Below the pieces are notes generated by a model. It saw nothing but the letters and a program-made list of their open reading frames with translations. It made no database searches and was not told where the DNA came from. A DNA stretch of 37,312 nt. It comes from Pseudobdellovibrionaceae bacterium. GTDB lineage: Bacteria > Bdellovibrionota > Bdellovibrionia > Bdellovibrionales > UBA1609. Positions 3,965 to 11,140 of the stretch are shown here, in pieces. The position numbers and the translations under genes were made by a program. Where the stretch lies: assembly GCA_018663505.1 (NCBI GenBank), contig JABJQG010000047.1, forward strand, positions 1-37,312, written 5' to 3'. Positions within the stretch are counted from its first letter, which is position 1, and each line of letters begins with the position of its first letter.

Positions 3965-5419
3965 TTGGTAAATGTAAGTACGTTAACAACATTATTAGTA
4001 ATTTTTGGAGTGGTATTGCTATTTAATAGTTTGCTATCAGTTGGCCTAAATCTATTGTATAAAAATAAACTCTATAAAATTTCAGCATTCCTCTGGATAA
4101 CTACATTTGTAAATTTTATTCTTCAAGGTATTTTTCAAGATAAAGATATGTTAACAGTTCTTGCATTTTCTACCTATTTTCCTACGTCTATCCTGTTTGT
4201 GCTTTTTTATAAAGAAACTATTGACTCAAAAACTATCAAACTAAATAGATACTATATCTTTGGTGCAATATGTATGGTTTCCAGCATCCTCTCATCACTT
4301 ATACATTTTAACTTTATCATAGCAGCGCTTTTTCCAGCAATTGCTATCGCATACCCTATGCTAGATATTTCATTTAAAGCTTTGAAAAATTTTAAATCTA
4401 ATAATGCAGTTGTTAACCTTTTTGCTATTACAATATTTTTAAATGCTTTGCACTTTATAGATTATCCTTTTTTACGTCACAACGACGACAACGCTGTGGT
4501 TGGTTTTTCAATTGCATTACTATTATTATTTGCTAGCTCCATCATAATACCCAGCTTAAGTATTTTAAAAATATCCAACAGATACTCACTTAGATTAGAA
4601 AAAAACGTGAAAAAAAGAACAGAAAGTCTAAATAAAGCCATGAGTCAGCTTCAGCTAGCTGCTGTGGAAATTGAAAATAAAAATGCAGATTTAAAAAAGA
4701 AGACTATAGATAATGATGCATTAATAAGTATACTTTGTCATGATTTAGCAAATCCAATTACCGTTCTAAAATATAAAGTAGAAATACTCTCTAAAGGTAC
4801 TAAAAACAGTAATTTAAATGAACAACAAATAAGTTCAATAAATAAATCTCAAGAATTAGTTAACAATATGATTGAAATCCTTGATGATGTTAGAAAAATG
4901 CATTCAATTCGACTTGGAAAGCTTAATCTAACCTTAAAGCCTGTGAATTTAAATAATTTAATTAAAGAAACATTGATGCTTTTTAGCGAACGAATAATTG
5001 AAAAAAATATTAAGGTAAATACTGACTGCACTGTAAGTAAGTTAATACTAAAAGCTGAAGAAAGTACGTTAAAAAACCAAGTTTTTGCCAATATAATTTC
5101 AAATGCCATAAAGTTTTCACATAAGGGCGGAGAAATCAATATATCCTCAACAGAAACAGATAATGAAATTAAACTCTCAATTCAAGATTTTGGCATTGGC
5201 ATCCCTAGCGAAATGCAAAAAAATATTTTTAGCTTTAAAGTGGCCACCAATAGAAAAGGAACCGACGGCGAAAGGGGAACTGGGTTTGGATTTCCAATTG
5301 TAAAAACCTGTTTAGAACTGTTTGGTGCTGACATTGAAGTAAAAAGTAGAACTAAGGAAGAGTACCCTGACCAAGACAGCGGCACTCAAATAAATATAAA
5401 TTTCAAGAAAGTGGCTTAA
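3965..5419 (+). CDS. Orphan membrane sensor histidine kinase
   Basis: A 484-aa protein with TTG start 3965, 7 bp after AGAGGA. Residues ~5-200 form about seven hydrophobic transmembrane segments, a 7TM-type sensor without a large periplasmic domain. A charged coiled-coil linker (~208-250) follows, then a HisKA domain with the phospho-acceptor in I-L-C-H-D-L-A-N-P (His259) and an HATPase domain with the N-box F-A-N-I-I-S-N-A-I-K-F, G1 D-F-G-I-G-I-P and G2 G-T-G-F-G-F-P. All key residues are present, so it should autophosphorylate. No response regulator or receiver domain occurs in the window, so the partner is elsewhere. The gene stands alone and converges on the diiron-protein gene. Confidence 0.92.
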   Translation: MVNVSTLTTLLVIFGVVLLFNSLLSVGLNLLYKNKLYKISAFLWITTFVNFILQGIFQDKDMLTVLAFSTYFPTSILFVLFYKETIDSKTIKLNRYYIFGAICMVSSILSSLIHFNFIIAALFPAIAIAYPMLDISFKALKNFKSNNAVVNLFAITIFLNALHFIDYPFLRHNDDNAVVGFSIALLLLFASSIIIPSLSILKISNRYSLRLEKNVKKRTESLNKAMSQLQLAAVEIENKNADLKKKTIDNDALISILCHDLANPITVLKYKVEILSKGTKNSNLNEQQISSINKSQELVNNMIEILDDVRKMHSIRLGKLNLTLKPVNLNNLIKETLMLFSERIIEKNIKVNTDCTVSKLILKAEESTLKNQVFANIISNAIKFSHKGGEINISSTETDNEIKLSIQDFGIGIPSEMQKNIFSFKVATNRKGTDGERGTGFGFPIVKTCLELFGADIEVKSRTKEEYPDQDSGTQININFKKVA

Positions 5420-5442
5420 TACTAAGTTAAATCAGTATTTTT
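5418..5442 (+). terminator. Possible weak terminator after the histidine kinase
   Basis: AATACT (5418-5423) and AGTATT (5434-5439) can pair across a 10-nt loop, followed by T residues. The stem is short and AT-only apart from one C-G pair, so this is a weak candidate. Confidence 0.3.
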
Positions 5443-6171
5443 CGTATTAAACAATTTTGTTTTATCTCTGTTGTATTTAAATCTTGTATTTCGATCATCA
5501 TACCAATTATCAAATATATTATCAAACATACTAAATATAGAATCAATAGCATCTTTACAATTAGTTAATTCATGGGAATTTAATAGTGTATCATATTTAA
5601 TTTCATCTTCTTCCCAAAGGTTATGTGACTGCTCTTTTTCTACATGGGTACGTCCATAGTATTCAAGTTGCTCAAACATCTCTTCACGCCTTACTCTTTG
5701 TTCCATATGTTTCGCAAAAACTGCAAAAACAGCTTCTAAAATTTCAATGATCACCAAAGAGTATATTGGAGATTTTGACAGCTTTATATAATGGATGCTG
5801 GTATAAACCACATCTCTAACTAAAAATGTATCATCTGACCACAATTGGCTTAACACATCATTTGCCGAATTTCCCCAAGTATCCATGTCAAAACCTAAAC
5901 ACTTCAAGTCATGAAGGTACCACTTCCAATGATCCTTATCTTCTAAACAGTGTTCATTCACTAAATGATCATATTTCGAAACAGGATTTTTAATTTTTAT
6001 CAAATCCAACATATCCTTAAATGACATTACTAAAAATGCCTGAGAAGGAACAAATGCAAACCTATCTTCCTGGTTCATATCCTCTGATGATAACCAGGTG
6101 CAAAATTGGCTTTTATTGAGCTTAGCTTTTCTTTCGTTTATTAAATCGTTAATAGTTTTAATCATTATCAT
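5422..6171 (-). CDS. Haem-oxygenase-like diiron oxidase/oxygenase family protein
   Basis: A 249-aa all-helical protein. The ligand pattern of haem-oxygenase-like diiron oxidases (HDO; relatives of CADD, UndA, BesC, SznF) is visible: Glu73-x7-His81 in one helix, Glu143/Glu146 in a second, and His176-x3-Glu180-x2-His183 in a third. A conserved D-R-F-A-F-V-P-S-x-A-F segment (36-46) is also typical of this fold. Such enzymes use O2 at two irons for N-oxygenation, desaturation or C-C cleavage. Its ATG overlaps the stop of the flavoprotein gene (ATGA), so the two are translationally coupled and probably act on one substrate. A second ATG two codons later is an alternative start. The substrate cannot be read from the sequence. 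Confidence 0.7.
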   Translation of the reverse strand: MIMIKTINDLINERKAKLNKSQFCTWLSSEDMNQEDRFAFVPSQAFLVMSFKDMLDLIKIKNPVSKYDHLVNEHCLEDKDHWKWYLHDLKCLGFDMDTWGNSANDVLSQLWSDDTFLVRDVVYTSIHYIKLSKSPIYSLVIIEILEAVFAVFAKHMEQRVRREEMFEQLEYYGRTHVEKEQSHNLWEEDEIKYDTLLNSHELTNCKDAIDSIFSMFDNIFDNWYDDRNTRFKYNRDKTKLFNTKNTDLT

Positions 6172-7790
6172 ACCTCTATATCAATGTGTGTTAGTTCTTT
6201 ACGGTATTGTGTTTTTACTGGTTTTTTCATAACTTCTTTAATATCAAAACTTGATATCTTAGATAAAAACTTCTCTAACAACTCTACATTACATTCGGTT
6301 TCAGTAAAATCATTTTCCAAATTCTCCTCTAAGTGAATTAATTCACTATAGTCATTTGACCTAAAACGAACAATAGGATGTAAATGAACACTTTTTTCAG
6401 GTTGTCCCGGAAAACGTGGAATACTTAGAGGGTCAGAATACTTATGTATATCACCGTATTCAAGAGATAAGCATAAAATTGATTTATCTTTTACACTAAC
6501 TTCATTATACCACTTTAATGTTCTGTAACCCAAAGTAGACCAAGACTCTTTCTCCTGATTCCATTTATAAACTTGTACAATCATTCCTGATTGTAGATAT
6601 ATCGCCGCATCATTTTTTAGTTCTTTAAAAAGATGGTCTGAAAAATCATCCTTTTCAAATTCTTCTAATTTTTCACTTAAATCCATTTTTTCAATTAATA
6701 TATTGGCTAAGGCGTCTGAATTATACCTAAAGCCATGAACAAAACCGCTTGAGGATGTCTGTTTATAATCTAAGCCGTGAGTTTGTGCACCAGCAAAAAA
6801 TAAATTTGATACATCTGTTGATTCAAACTCACCATTAATTGATGGAAATTTTTCTCCATGTAAATTACTAATTTTTAATCCATTTTCTAAACATTTTAAA
6901 TCGGAAACAAACCCCGTGGTAGAAATAATCTCATCAAAATAAAGAGTTTCAATTTCACATTCTGCATGAGTATAATTTACCGTAACATTAAATCCAGAAC
7001 CACTCGGAACAATTTCATCAATTTCACAATCCAACATTGCTGATTGATGTTTTAACATATAATTTTCTACAAGTTGAAAATTAACAGCACGTACATTTCC
7101 AACATAATGGGACATATACGCAGGCTTAATAGACGATCTGCTAGCCATCATTATCGTGTTGGCTTCATTTATGATATCTTGAGCTACCTCCATCCCACTA
7201 TTCCCTTTACCTAGAATCATCACTCTTTTATCTCGATAGTATTCCTTAAGCTTACAATTCTCATAAGGAGTTACGTGTTCAATCCCCTTTATTGGAGCCG
7301 TAAATGGCTTTAAACCAGTAGCAACTACAACATAAGAGGTCATGTAAAACCCTTTATTGGTTGTAACTAAAAATTTCCCGCTTTCAATTTTTTCAATTTT
7401 TTCACAAGTCACTCCATACTCTATGGGTAGATCATATTCTTTAACAACATCTTGAAGCATATCAACTAAAGCTGAATTTTTTGGATAAAAATATCGACAA
7501 TAATTTCTCATTAAATGATTTTTACTTTTAGTAATAAGTGAGTTCCAATCAAAACGTTCAGAAAATCGACTTTTAGCCGGTTCACCTGTATACAATTTGT
7601 TGTTACTAATGAGAGTGCCATGAACCGGGTATGTTTTAAAAAATGAACCAGGAATTTCATTTCTCTCCAATAGGACTGTATCTAATTTTTCCCTTTCAAT
7701 TTTATCAAACAAACTTACTGCTAGCTGAATGGCTCCAGGGCCGGCACCAATTATAACAATATCTTTATCAATAACTTTAGCTTCACTCAT
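6168..7790 (-). CDS. FAD-dependent NAD(P)-binding oxidoreductase, FOXRED2/flavin monooxygenase-like
   Basis: A 540-aa protein with an N-terminal FAD Rossmann motif (I-I-G-A-G-P-G-A, 13-20), the V-V-A-T-G-L motif (155-160), a second nucleotide-binding motif for NAD(P)H (I-L-G-K-G-N-S-G, 192-199), and a distal T-T-G-F motif. The segment G-S-F-F-K-T-Y-P-V-H-G-T-L-I-S-N-N-K with a downstream D-W-N-S-L resembles FOXRED2-type flavoproteins, a sister group of flavin monooxygenases. Residues from ~380 form an extra C-terminal domain of unknown role. No signal peptide is present, so it is cytoplasmic. The start is ATG 7790 behind GGGGGA. It is coupled by a 4-bp overlap to the diiron protein; inferred role is hydroxylation or reductive activation in a small tailoring pathway. 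Confidence 0.8.
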   Translation of the reverse strand: MSEAKVIDKDIVIIGAGPGAIQLAVSLFDKIEREKLDTVLLERNEIPGSFFKTYPVHGTLISNNKLYTGEPAKSRFSERFDWNSLITKSKNHLMRNYCRYFYPKNSALVDMLQDVVKEYDLPIEYGVTCEKIEKIESGKFLVTTNKGFYMTSYVVVATGLKPFTAPIKGIEHVTPYENCKLKEYYRDKRVMILGKGNSGMEVAQDIINEANTIMMASRSSIKPAYMSHYVGNVRAVNFQLVENYMLKHQSAMLDCEIDEIVPSGSGFNVTVNYTHAECEIETLYFDEIISTTGFVSDLKCLENGLKISNLHGEKFPSINGEFESTDVSNLFFAGAQTHGLDYKQTSSSGFVHGFRYNSDALANILIEKMDLSEKLEEFEKDDFSDHLFKELKNDAAIYLQSGMIVQVYKWNQEKESWSTLGYRTLKWYNEVSVKDKSILCLSLEYGDIHKYSDPLSIPRFPGQPEKSVHLHPIVRFRSNDYSELIHLEENLENDFTETECNVELLEKFLSKISSFDIKEVMKKPVKTQYRKELTHIDIEV

Positions 7791-8108: not shown

Positions 8109-9584
8109 CTAAGATGCTTTTCGTTTATAACTTTGACTAATATCCTCTTCACTTAAAATATGATCACAACTTCTGCATTTAAACACATAAACTCCCTCAG
8201 AGTTTTGATCTATATGCATTATTGTTTGGCAAGAAGGACAGTCGTAAGAATCCGCACCATGGGTATTCTTTTTTAATGCTTTAACCAGGCTATAAACCTT
8301 TATACTATCACTCTCAAAACCTTTTAAGCTTTTCTTACCTAAATAAGAAAACTCATAGTCTTCTATTCCTAGCTCTTCTATTACAGAATAGGGCAATAGA
8401 ATTTCACTTGGGTTCGCTAAAGAACAAAGCCTTGAGGCTAAATTAACAACCGGCCCAATAGCCGTATAAGAATGGTAATATTTTTGATTGCCGTAAAACC
8501 CAACATTAGCGTAACCTTTGGCTATACCAACAGTGATTTCAAGTTCTTTTAGCCAATAGTTTTCATATATAAATCCCCGATCCTTAATTTTCTGACGAAT
8601 TTCAATCGCTGCATCGACCACTCTTTTTACATAATCACTTTGGTTAATAGGAGCATTTGAAAAAGCAAGAATTCCATCTCCAAGAAACTTATCAATTGTT
8701 ATGTCATATTTAAGCAAAACCTTATTCGTATCTTCTAAAAACATAGATATCACTTTATCAACTTGAGAACTATCTAAGCGTGTAACACGTTCAGTGGAAT
8801 TAACAATATCAATAAATATACTGCAAATTTCCTCCCTATGTACGTTTGAATCTATACTCACTTTTTTATCTAAAATTGCTTTTACCACCTGTGGAGAAAA
8901 CTGCTGACTCATTAAGGAGTAATCTAAAGCCTCTTGTGTTTTTGACTCAATAATTATTTCTCTATTCACCAGTTCTTCTTTTAGGCTCATTCTTGAAAGA
9001 AGTTCAGTTAGTCTCAGGTTATTTGAAAAATTTCGAATAAATACAGAGATTACTACAGTACCAACAATAAAAAATGAGTTAAAAAATAAGGTTTTATAGT
9101 AAAGCTCACCTGAGTAAATAAAAGGATTTACAGCAAAGTATGGTAGATAAATGCATGTAAGTGTTGCTATCATATATTTATAGGACCACGGAATTAAAAT
9201 AATAGACCCAATAGCTAATAGGTTTAACCCCCCATAATAAAGCGACAAGGGGTCTCCTGATATATATATCATAGCATTTATAATAATGGCTAAACCAAAA
9301 ACAAATGAAATCACAATTCCTTGAAGAGCTCTAATAGACTTCTTTTTCTTGATCAAATATCTAGCAGTTAATCCCAGTGGAATGGTTAATAGTCTTAAAG
9401 CTAAAAACTCCCATTTTAAATGAGGAACATAAACTAGATCACATAGCCAAAAAACAATATATAAGGGCAAGACCGTTGTGTCTGTAAAGTTAATTACAAA
9501 CGCCTTTAAGTCTAAAACCCTTTCACGCTCTCTTTTTTCTAAAAAAGATTGCGTATTCATTTTTTCTTTTTGGCTATTTTTCAT
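8109..9584 (-). CDS. Membrane-bound class III adenylate cyclase with C-terminal zinc ribbon
   Basis: A 491-aa protein. Residues ~30-185 give about six transmembrane helices, ~190-225 a helical linker, and ~250-435 a class III cyclase homology domain. Metal-binding Asp259 (F-I-D-I-V-N-S-T) and Asp303 (K-F-L-G-D-G), Lys299 for adenine recognition, and transition-state Asn381 and Arg385 (V-N-L-A-S-R-L) are all present. Thr373 sits at the second purine-specificity position, as in many bacterial adenylate cyclases, so the product is probably cAMP. The C-terminus carries a zinc ribbon (Cys449-x2-Cys452 ... Cys470-x2-Cys473), an unusual addition. The gene begins 3 bp after the methyltransferase stop, so the two form an operon. 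Confidence 0.9.
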   Translation of the reverse strand: MKNSQKEKMNTQSFLEKRERERVLDLKAFVINFTDTTVLPLYIVFWLCDLVYVPHLKWEFLALRLLTIPLGLTARYLIKKKKSIRALQGIVISFVFGLAIIINAMIYISGDPLSLYYGGLNLLAIGSIILIPWSYKYMIATLTCIYLPYFAVNPFIYSGELYYKTLFFNSFFIVGTVVISVFIRNFSNNLRLTELLSRMSLKEELVNREIIIESKTQEALDYSLMSQQFSPQVVKAILDKKVSIDSNVHREEICSIFIDIVNSTERVTRLDSSQVDKVISMFLEDTNKVLLKYDITIDKFLGDGILAFSNAPINQSDYVKRVVDAAIEIRQKIKDRGFIYENYWLKELEITVGIAKGYANVGFYGNQKYYHSYTAIGPVVNLASRLCSLANPSEILLPYSVIEELGIEDYEFSYLGKKSLKGFESDSIKVYSLVKALKKNTHGADSYDCPSCQTIMHIDQNSEGVYVFKCRSCDHILSEEDISQSYKRKAS

Positions 9585-9587
9585 TTG

Positions 9588-11015
9588 TTAACTCTTTAGC
9601 CTACAAAATAAGTTAATATTTAATGGCTCCGTGTCAATTTGTAAGTCCGAACATACCCCCTCAAAAAGATCCCTTAAGTTATCCATTGACCTATATATCA
9701 AATGCCAATCAAATATTATTGTTATCCCTGCGACATTAGGGTTCCCTACATTAAAGTTGCCAATAATTAATTCAGACTTATCTTTTAGTTTTGAATAAAG
9801 TTGCTTAGCCGTGATTTTTGCAACAGGTGCAGAAAGGTAATCAAAAAGCCCTGCTGAATAAATTAAATCATACTTTTGTTCACCTTCCCCACTTTCACTG
9901 ATCAAATTTTTTATAGCTTTATTTATATAGAAAAAATTTATTTTACAATTGTGTTCTAAGCATAATTTTTTAACCTGTTCTTGAGAAAATTGCAGAGCTC
10001 TAACATCTTGATCTAATAAGTATACATTAACATTATCATACTCATTAAACTGACCTGACTTAACTAGTCCTTGCCATTCATTTGATGGACCGCATGCCAC
10101 TGATAAAATATTAATTTCCTTTTGACCTTTTCTTTCTAAAAGAGTTTCTGTTATTCTAGCCGTAATGTATTCAGATCTGTTTCTTACAGCTTTAGGTGAT
10201 GGCTCATGTAGATAATAATGATGCAGTACTTTTTCAAATAATGTTTTACCAACGATCTCATTTTTATAAATCAAGTTCATAGACTCAAAATCGCCAGCAT
10301 AGCCTAAGGGTTTTTTATAAACCCTTTGAGCAAAAGGTGATTTATAAGCTATCCCACTTATTTTTTCTCTTAAAAACTCAATGGACTTAATCCGTGTTTC
10401 TTCATCAAACTGATCTATAACTGTTTGAAAATTATTGTATACCATTGGGAACGAAGCTCCAATATAACTAGAAACAACACTTATAAATGCTTCCTCAAAA
10501 GCTGAGTTTTGTTCCCCTGGATTTGAGTTTCCCTCTATTTGAGTAATTCTTTCCTCTAGCCTCTCCATCCAGTCTTTCACCTGATAGGTCTGTACTTTAA
10601 CCTCAGCTGGTATCTGTACAATTTCTTCTACGTATTTAGTATGCTCTTCAGTGAGCATTGTCGCTATATTAATAGCATTTATGTGCTCTTTGTTTATGGG
10701 TATTCCTATGACTTCATATGCACATTCATAAAAATCATCATGTTTTTCATGACGAACTAACTTAAGATCTACAATTGCTGCTTCAATATTTTTAATTAAA
10801 AAAATAGCTCCTCTTATTACCTCTTTAGCACTAATATCTTCTTCAGACTTTATCGCTACTCCAAAGGGGGTGTAATTTATAATAGGTTTTTTGACTCCGT
10901 TAACCTCTAAAAAGATATCCGGTATTACTATTGGTATCCTGTCCTGCCTAATTATTTTTAACCTTTTAGTTGGGGCTATTTCAAAATCTTCATGGTTTGC
11001 TGACTTAATTGACAT
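9588..11015 (-). CDS. PilZ-like domain and class I SAM-dependent methyltransferase protein
   Basis: The start is set at ATG 11015 because AAGAGG lies 7 bp before it; the open frame continues upstream to 11084 without a ribosome site. This gives 475 aa. Residues ~15-115 (R-L-K-I-I-R ... I-N-Y-T-P-F-G-V-A-I) resemble a PilZ beta-barrel but lack a clear R-x-x-x-R c-di-GMP switch. A helical linker follows, then K-P-L-G-Y-A-G-D-F-E and a SAM-binding motif I-L-S-V-A-C-G-P-S-N-E with acidic L-L-D-Q-D. This arrangement occurs in proteins often annotated as (3-hydroxypalmitate methyl ester) methyltransferases, but the substrate here is unknown. It is the first gene of an operon with the adenylate cyclase, suggesting regulation of, or by, cyclic nucleotide signalling. 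Confidence 0.75.
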   Translation of the reverse strand: MSIKSANHEDFEIAPTKRLKIIRQDRIPIVIPDIFLEVNGVKKPIINYTPFGVAIKSEEDISAKEVIRGAIFLIKNIEAAIVDLKLVRHEKHDDFYECAYEVIGIPINKEHINAINIATMLTEEHTKYVEEIVQIPAEVKVQTYQVKDWMERLEERITQIEGNSNPGEQNSAFEEAFISVVSSYIGASFPMVYNNFQTVIDQFDEETRIKSIEFLREKISGIAYKSPFAQRVYKKPLGYAGDFESMNLIYKNEIVGKTLFEKVLHHYYLHEPSPKAVRNRSEYITARITETLLERKGQKEINILSVACGPSNEWQGLVKSGQFNEYDNVNVYLLDQDVRALQFSQEQVKKLCLEHNCKINFFYINKAIKNLISESGEGEQKYDLIYSAGLFDYLSAPVAKITAKQLYSKLKDKSELIIGNFNVGNPNVAGITIIFDWHLIYRSMDNLRDLFEGVCSDLQIDTEPLNINLFCRLKS

Positions 11016-11140
11016 TGTAACCTCTTTGTTGATTGTCATTCCTGTGTATATATCGACAATTTCAGTGTTTTTTGAAAATAACATGAAGAATTAGGCCTTA
11101 AGTCCTGGGCGCAAATTATTTCGTATTTCCAATACCTTAA

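What the first reader, a model, noticed from the sequence alone, without database searches (positions are those of the whole stretch)
5422..7790. Coupled FOXRED2-like flavoprotein and haem-oxygenase-like diiron protein
A 4-bp ATGA overlap ties a two-Rossmann FAD/NAD(P)H enzyme to a protein with the full E-x7-H ... E ... H-x3-E-x2-H ligand set. N-oxygenase and desaturase/lyase pairs of this kind build small metabolites, and this pair has no other biosynthetic genes nearby, suggesting a self-contained and perhaps undescribed transformation.
Basis: partly seen in the sequence, partly recalled or inferred. Interest (0 to 1): 0.72.

Follow-up and report, generated by a model that had tools for sequence, protein, structure and literature searches.

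The report
Diiron oxidase paired with sensor kinase
A bacterial iron enzyme related to a known nitrile-making enzyme sits tail to tail with a membrane sensor kinase in several relatives, which suggests that the enzyme makes a small signal molecule that the kinase detects.

Summary
The two genes are real. The 249-aa protein is a diiron oxidase of the AetD (nitrile synthase) family: E 5e-19 to AetD, and all six AetD iron ligands conserved. The flavoprotein is a Pyr_redox_3 enzyme and probably co-translated, but it is not a conserved partner: none of the 8 other AetD-like loci of the phylum has it.
The conserved partner lies just outside the finding: a multi-TM sensor histidine kinase (3965-5419, +), convergent with the oxidase gene. 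AetD-like genes occur in 9 of 368 genomes, and in 8 of 9 such a kinase is tail to tail with them. The wider kinase family (55 genes) is next to an AetD-like oxidase in 8 cases and to a second haem-oxygenase-like oxidase (PF14518), usually with an unannotated protein, in 19; 28 have neither. Oxidase-linked kinases fall in one clade.
Best reading: a signal-synthase/receptor-kinase cassette, in which the oxidase trims an amino acid to a small diffusible product that the kinase senses. The pairing is shown; the chemistry and the signalling are inferred.

The parts
5422..6171 (-). AetD-like haem-oxygenase-like diiron oxidase, 249 aa (247 aa from the better-supported start at 6165)
   Evidence: phmmer vs PDB: AetD E 5e-19, no other HDO; 30% identity; no Pfam or NCBIfam hit at E<=1
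5938..5940 (-). codon of D78 = AetD D76, Fe2 ligand
   Evidence: alignment; AetD ligands from PMC10654658/PMC11611611
5929..5931 (-). codon of H81 = AetD H79, Fe1 ligand
5734..5736 (-). codon of E146 = AetD E140, Fe2 ligand
5623..5646 (-). H176-x3-E180-x2-H183 = AetD H172/E176/H179
3965..5419 (+). multi-TM sensor histidine kinase, convergent with the oxidase gene (2-nt gap between stops)
   Evidence: HisKA and HATPase_c; full-length homologues at 28-36% identity next to the AetD-like gene in 7 relatives; H, N, G1 and G2 boxes conserved
3965..4576 (+). sensor domain: seven hydrophobic peaks, conserved H163-x2-D166-Y-P-x-L-R171
   Evidence: no Pfam match for this part
6168..7790 (-). two-Rossmann NAD(P)H/FAD flavoprotein, 540 aa, just upstream of the oxidase gene
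   Evidence: Pyr_redox_3 E 9e-38; nearest PDB sequence YpdA; homologues L008 and L018 without an AetD-like neighbour
6173..6176 (-). GAGG, ribosome-binding-like, 7 nt before the second ATG (6165)
   Evidence: by eye

Best explanation
The locus is a small-molecule signal cassette. The AetD-like diiron oxidase binds an alpha-amino acid through its amine and carboxylate at Fe1, activates O2, and trims it oxidatively to a small, membrane-permeant product; a nitrile or a skatole-type product are the known outcomes for its nearest characterised relatives. The neighbouring multi-TM sensor kinase detects that product, or a close derivative, and passes the message to a response regulator. In this genome the flavoprotein has been added upstream, either to pre-modify the substrate or to supply electrons. 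Shown: family, ligand set, kinase competence motifs, conserved convergent pairing, one kinase clade for the oxidase-linked kinases. Inferred: substrate, product, ligand-receptor relation, role of the flavoprotein.
For: (1) AetD homology E 5e-19; six ligands in 17 of 17 members, F48 equivalent in 17 of 17, Y167 (binds the substrate carboxylate) in 16 of 17 (residue roles). (2) Pairing: 8 of the 9 genomes with an AetD-like gene, out of 368, have the kinase tail to tail with it, from a 65-nt overlap to a 64-nt gap; 4 genera; no other window gene is shared with those loci apart from generic kinase matches. (3) The 8 best sensor-domain hits among 56 places are exactly these 8 (the profile was built from them). 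(4) 55 family kinases: 8 next to AetD-like, 15 to PF14518 oxidase + P2, 4 to PF14518 oxidase alone, 28 to neither. Clustering all neighbours without labels ranks the second oxidase (19 loci, 10 genera), P2 (15, 9), response regulators (10, 4) and AetD-like (8, 4) on top. (5) Tree of 52 kinases: one clade of 36 (97/90) holds all 26 oxidase-adjacent rows, the other 16 hold none, so one receptor line goes with two kinds of oxidase. (6) Precedents: adjacent synthase and receptor-kinase genes in CqsA/CqsS and LqsA/LqsS (PMC3376566 passages); a haem-oxygenase-like protein, HamA, in the cluster of the quorum signal valdiazen (PMC5878181 passages).
Against: No product, ligand or phenotype is known. 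28 of 55 family kinases have no oxidase within two genes, so the sensor domain need not always read an oxidase product. One AetD-like genome (G320) lacks the kinase beside it. AetD-like genes outside the phylum have other neighbours, and the two Bacteroidota genomes searched have no such sensor. Conserved neighbourhood could mean common regulation rather than synthase and receptor. The pocket differs from AetD: F44 to L47 (only in the window), I146 to F, S214 to F, G143 to F. Structure prediction failed. The AetD-linked kinases are not one clade (3 changes).
Confidence: 0.5

Rival explanations
1. The oxidase and flavoprotein form a secondary-metabolite pair: the flavoprotein oxidises or halogenates an amino acid and the oxidase converts it. 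The kinase merely regulates production.
For: Tight coupling of the two genes. In Aetokthonos a flavoprotein (AetF) feeds AetD (PMC10654658 passages). A Calothrix plasmid has an AetD-like gene between a tryptophan dimethylallyltransferase and an FMO + SDR.
Against: The flavoprotein is absent from all 8 other AetD-like loci of the phylum, while the kinase is in 7 of those 8. AetF was not among the PDB matches listed for the flavoprotein (all 48 at E<=10, best 60 of 413). No export, activation or tailoring gene was seen in the window ORFs scanned, apart from the flavoprotein.
Confidence: 0.2
2. The kinase senses something else (redox state, oxygen, membrane state) and the oxidase is one of its targets, making a metabolite with no signal role.
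For: 28 of 55 kinases lack an oxidase neighbour; response regulators adjoin several of the kinases; diiron oxidases of this kind use O2 (review PMC13108848 passages).
Against: Kinases of one clade sit next to two different oxidase kinds, often convergent, an arrangement that puts kinase and oxidase under separate promoters; co-regulated target genes more often share an operon (general expectation, not tested).
Confidence: 0.2
3. Convergent neighbours kept by overlap or antisense constraint only, with no functional link.
For: The two genes overlap at their 3' ends in 6 of 8 cases, which can slow separation.
Against: In the window and in G075 they do not overlap (gaps 2 and 64 nt); the pair lies in unrelated surroundings; the same kinase clade recurs beside a second oxidase kind, in several orientations.
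Confidence: 0.08

Closest known systems
AetD, nitrile synthase of aetokthonotoxin biosynthesis (HDO superfamily)
   Same: Homologous over about 218 residues (E 5e-19), same six iron ligands, same F48 and Y167 equivalents
   Different: 30% identity; pocket residues F44, I146, S214 and G143 replaced; no aet-like cluster seen nearby; genetic partner is a sensor kinase
SktA (5-bromo-L-Trp to 5-bromoskatole HDO; seen only in passages of the review PMC13108848)
   Same: Acts on a tryptophan; carries F at AetD position 214, as the window does (F216)
   Different: No SktA sequence was at hand; its T139 and T142 are L145 and V148 in the window by alignment
CqsA/CqsS and LqsA/LqsS synthase + receptor-kinase pairs
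   Same: Enzyme gene adjacent to the gene of a membrane sensor histidine kinase (PMC3376566 passages)
   Different: CqsA and LqsA are PLP enzymes making alpha-hydroxyketones (PLP in the same passages); homology of the sensor domains was not tested
pvf / ham (valdiazen) quorum systems
   Same: A haem-oxygenase-like enzyme (HamA) in a signal-making cluster (PMC5878181 passages)
   Different: NRPS-based; Pvf receptor not known in 2023 (PMC10194917 passages); no kinase pair seen in those passages
PF14518 iron-containing redox enzymes (HDO2 here)
   Same: Haem-oxygenase-like family, next to kinases of the same clade
   Different: Separate family: the window protein has no Pfam match

Membership tests
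AetD-like HDO | Significant sequence homology to AetD | tested here: met
   E 5e-19, 30% identity, best and only HDO hit in PDB
AetD-like HDO | 3-His/3-carboxylate set D76, H79, E140, H172, E176, H179 | tested here: met
   D78, H81, E146, H176, E180, H183
AetD-like HDO | Hydrophobic residue (F48) instead of a seventh carboxylate, i.e. substrate-triggered type | tested here: met
   F51; 17 of 17 aligned
AetD-like HDO | Haem-oxygenase-like fold | tested here: inconclusive
   AlphaFold2 with 3 rows: pLDDT 50.2, all-helical, unusable
AetD (nitrile synthase proper) | Indole pocket F44, I146, S214 | tested here: not met
   L47, F152, F216
AetD (nitrile synthase proper) | Converts (bromo)tryptophan to a nitrile | not testable with these tools
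   needs an enzyme assay
AetF single-component halogenase | Sequence relation to AetF | tested here: inconclusive
   AetF not among 48 PDB matches at E<=10 nor the best 60 of 413 of the profile; 353 profile matches not shown
FOXRED2-like flavoprotein | Homology to FOXRED2 including the C-terminal part | not tested
   no FOXRED2 sequence searched
Synthase/receptor-kinase pair (CqsA/CqsS type) | Enzyme gene and membrane kinase gene adjacent and conserved as a pair | tested here: met
   8 of 9 AetD-like genomes
Synthase/receptor-kinase pair (CqsA/CqsS type) | Multi-TM sensor plus catalytically competent kinase | tested here: met
   7 hydrophobic peaks; H259, N376/N380, D408-x-G-x-G, GTG-x-G
CqsA/LqsA synthase | PLP-dependent synthase | tested here: not met
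   the enzyme is an AetD-like diiron protein
Synthase/receptor-kinase pair (CqsA/CqsS type) | The kinase responds to the enzyme's product | not testable with these tools
   needs an experiment

The most novel reading that the evidence does not exclude
An undescribed class of bacterial chemical signalling in this phylum (Bdellovibrionota by recall): a family of multi-TM receptor kinases whose ligands are made by haem-oxygenase-like diiron oxidases, either AetD-like enzymes acting alone on a free amino acid or PF14518 oxidases with an unannotated partner, so that the synthase can be exchanged under one receptor architecture.
Probability: 0.42. Interest if true: 0.85.

Novelty: new variant of a known kind. 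Interest (0 to 1): 0.7.

Why it matters
If true, it gives a concrete two-gene handle on chemical communication in a group that includes predatory bacteria, adds a biological role (signal synthesis) to AetD-type chemistry known from a cyanobacterial toxin pathway, and offers candidate receptors of a new kind for oxidase-made signals; for the pvf signal system the receptor was still unknown in 2023 (PMC10194917 passages). It also makes a generic annotation ('hypothetical protein next to a kinase') directly testable.

Tried and rejected
Flavoprotein as conserved partner: rejected, 0 of 8 other AetD-like loci of the phylum have it and its two homologues lack an AetD-like neighbour. AetF-like halogenase reading of the flavoprotein: no support. 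Viral or phage carriage: no relatives of either protein in viral contigs and none of the oxidase in the phage records. Structure route: AlphaFold2 with 3 permitted rows gave pLDDT 50, so no fold search was made and the second job was not used. P2 as a GNAT/LuxI-like enzyme: only an impression by eye; no Pfam, NCBIfam or PDB match, so not claimed; the label GNAT in my scripts and notes is that impression. Promoter and terminator scan: counts equal to shuffles. Not in print: nothing on an HDO/sensor-kinase pair in the listings, nor in the passages of the 2026 HDO review (0 occurrences of signal, kinase or quorum); these searches cover open-licence PMC papers only.

Rows dropped before counts: kinases under 300 aa (3 of 55) before the tree; the two duplicated-domain proteins were left out when the AetD-like profile was built. 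The second-oxidase profile was rebuilt once with its own hits, which included AetD-like proteins; the two kinds were then told apart by the AetD-like profile. Gene calls are my own longest-ORF calls and miss some genes (e.g. no HDO2 called in L116; no kinase in L108).

Full report
WHAT IS THERE. The window is contig C22 of a draft genome (3.78 Mb, 72 contigs, 97% complete). Its phylum is very probably Bdellovibrionota: contigs of two relatives are 3,782,950 and 2,657,893 bases, which I recall as the sizes of Bdellovibrio bacteriovorus HD100 and B. exovorus; no call names them. The finding covers two minus-strand genes: a 540-aa flavoprotein (6168-7790) and a 249-aa protein (5422-6171). They are tightly coupled. 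The ATGA overlap exists, but GAGG stands 7 nt before the second ATG (6165) and 1 nt before the first, so a 2-nt gap is more likely.

THE 249-AA PROTEIN. It has no Pfam or NCBIfam match at E<=1, but phmmer against PDB sequences finds AetD, the nitrile synthase of aetokthonotoxin biosynthesis, at E 5e-19 and no other haem-oxygenase-like protein. AetD's iron ligands are D76, H79, E140, H172, E176 and H179 (passages of PMC10654658 and PMC11611611). In an alignment of 17 family members (the window, AetD, 8 phylum relatives, 2 Bacteroidota, 5 plasmid-borne) all six are kept in 17 of 17; in the window they are D78, H81, E146, H176, E180 and H183. F48, which leaves a coordination site open for the substrate, is F51 (17 of 17); Y167, which binds the substrate carboxylate, is Y171 (16 of 17; roles from section texts). 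The pocket is not AetD's: F44 is L47 (F in all 16 others), I146 is F152, S214 is F216 and G143 is F149. AetD works on unbrominated L-Trp too (abstract of PMC10654658), and its relative SktA, with F214, turns 5-bromo-Trp into 5-bromoskatole (review passages). The extra Phe residues in the kinase-linked group suggest a smaller pocket, so a smaller hydrophobic amino acid is as possible as Trp; this is inference. The AlphaFold2 model was not usable.

THE FLAVOPROTEIN. Pyr_redox_3 at E 9e-38, nearest solved sequences YpdA and small flavin monooxygenases. At E<=1e-30 only 2 of 368 phylum genomes have it, the window's own and G058; a third homologue lies on a Nonomuraea replicon (32% over 95%). Neither has an AetD-like neighbour, and none of the 8 other AetD-like loci of the phylum has the flavoprotein.

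THE CONSERVED PARTNER. AetD-like genes occur in 9 of 368 phylum genomes at E<=1e-5. In 8 of the 9 the gene is tail to tail with a membrane histidine kinase; in the 7 relatives it is homologous over its full length to window 3965-5419 (28-36% identity), with distances from a 65-nt overlap to a 64-nt gap. The ninth, G320, has no kinase on its 6.2-kb contig. The 8 fall in 4 genera, and the four of genus g37 share their surroundings, so count about 4 independent contexts. Between the window and these loci no other gene is shared apart from generic kinase matches. Identities of the oxidase and kinase pairs run together (r 0.98 over 28 pairs), as expected for joint descent and also for shared phylogeny. 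The sensor shows seven hydrophobic peaks, a conserved H-x2-DYP-x-LR and no Pfam match; kinase boxes are intact.

THE WIDER FAMILY. A profile of the sensor domain finds 56 places in 50 of 368 genomes; the best 8 are the AetD-linked ones from which it was built. I fetched the surroundings of the other 48 places besides those of the 8 (window) and recovered 55 kinases in 54 of 55 loci. Within two genes: AetD-like 8, PF14518 oxidase + P2 15, PF14518 oxidase alone 4, neither 28 (5 of these with no 3' neighbour on the contig). Clustering the neighbours without labels puts the second oxidase (19 loci, 10 genera), P2 (15, 9), response regulators (10, 4) and AetD-like (8, 4) first. The second oxidase is PF14518 (E 3e-11 to 1e-16 in three proteins) and its profile hits a solved haem-oxygenase-like protein and MboA; P2 has no match in Pfam, NCBIfam or PDB sequences. 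As the second oxidase occurs in 154 of 368 genomes, chance adjacency would be well under one case in 55 kinases (my estimate, about 3,300 genes and one or two oxidases per genome). A tree of 52 kinases puts all 26 oxidase-adjacent rows into one clade of 36 (97/90) and none among the other 16; inside it the AetD-like partner needs 3 changes (shuffled mean 7.5), and the window's kinase lies among both AetD-like- and second-oxidase-linked kinases. Of 22 second-oxidase loci (20 taken from the list, mostly away from this kinase, plus two already held), 19 have P2 beside the oxidase and 8 have a kinase-core protein within three genes (read from its table), so these modules also go with other regulators or none.

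HOW IT MOST LIKELY WORKS. The oxidase makes a small amino-acid-derived product; the kinase reads it. The pairing, the exchange of oxidase kind within one kinase clade, and the convergent layout (receptor and synthase each with its own promoter) fit a synthase/receptor cassette like CqsA/CqsS (PMC3376566 passages). A haem-oxygenase-like enzyme in a quorum-signal cluster has a precedent in ham (PMC5878181 passages). None of the chemistry or signalling is shown here.

LIMITS. Genomes are one per species and many are drafts; gene calls are naive; controls are estimates, not a survey of all kinases. AetD-like genes outside the phylum have other neighbours, and two Bacteroidota genomes and one Calothrix plasmid searched have no such sensor. 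28 of 55 kinases without an oxidase neighbour remain unexplained.

Noticed in passing
L022:10007-11509, L034:6001-7503, L035:6001-7503: A 500-aa 'hypothetical protein' on Escherichia plasmids is two AetD-like domains in tandem, the first with all six iron ligands; 265 of 5426 complete E. coli genomes carry it, nearly always on plasmids. Function unknown.
   Followed up: partly
L021:7944-9509: Piscirickettsia salmonis plasmids (36 records) carry a similar AetD-like protein; the one read is 521 aa with a related second half.
   Followed up: no
L023:6763-11398: Calothrix sp. NIES-4101 plasmid: tryptophan dimethylallyltransferase, AetD-like oxidase, FMO and SDR in a row, a likely indole-product cluster.
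   Followed up: no
L113-L134 (e.g. L114:8070-9428): PF14518 oxidase + unannotated ~230-aa P2 modules are widespread in the phylum and often adjoin a ~225-aa protein of recurring type or an HTH protein (by eye).
   Followed up: partly
L096, L097, L107, L110: Four sensor-family kinases of one genus without an oxidase neighbour all adjoin a ~287-aa protein with no clear Pfam family (one scanned), perhaps another partner kind.
   Followed up: no
L018:6445-10971: In Nonomuraea the flavoprotein homologue lies between ORFs that look like an acyl-AMP ligase and a P450 (by eye, not scanned).
   Followed up: no
window 8109-11084: Upstream of the flavoprotein: an adenylate/guanylate cyclase with a hydrophobic N-terminal part and a Zn-ribbon-like C-terminal end, then a 498-aa protein with a C-terminal methyltransferase domain.
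   Followed up: no
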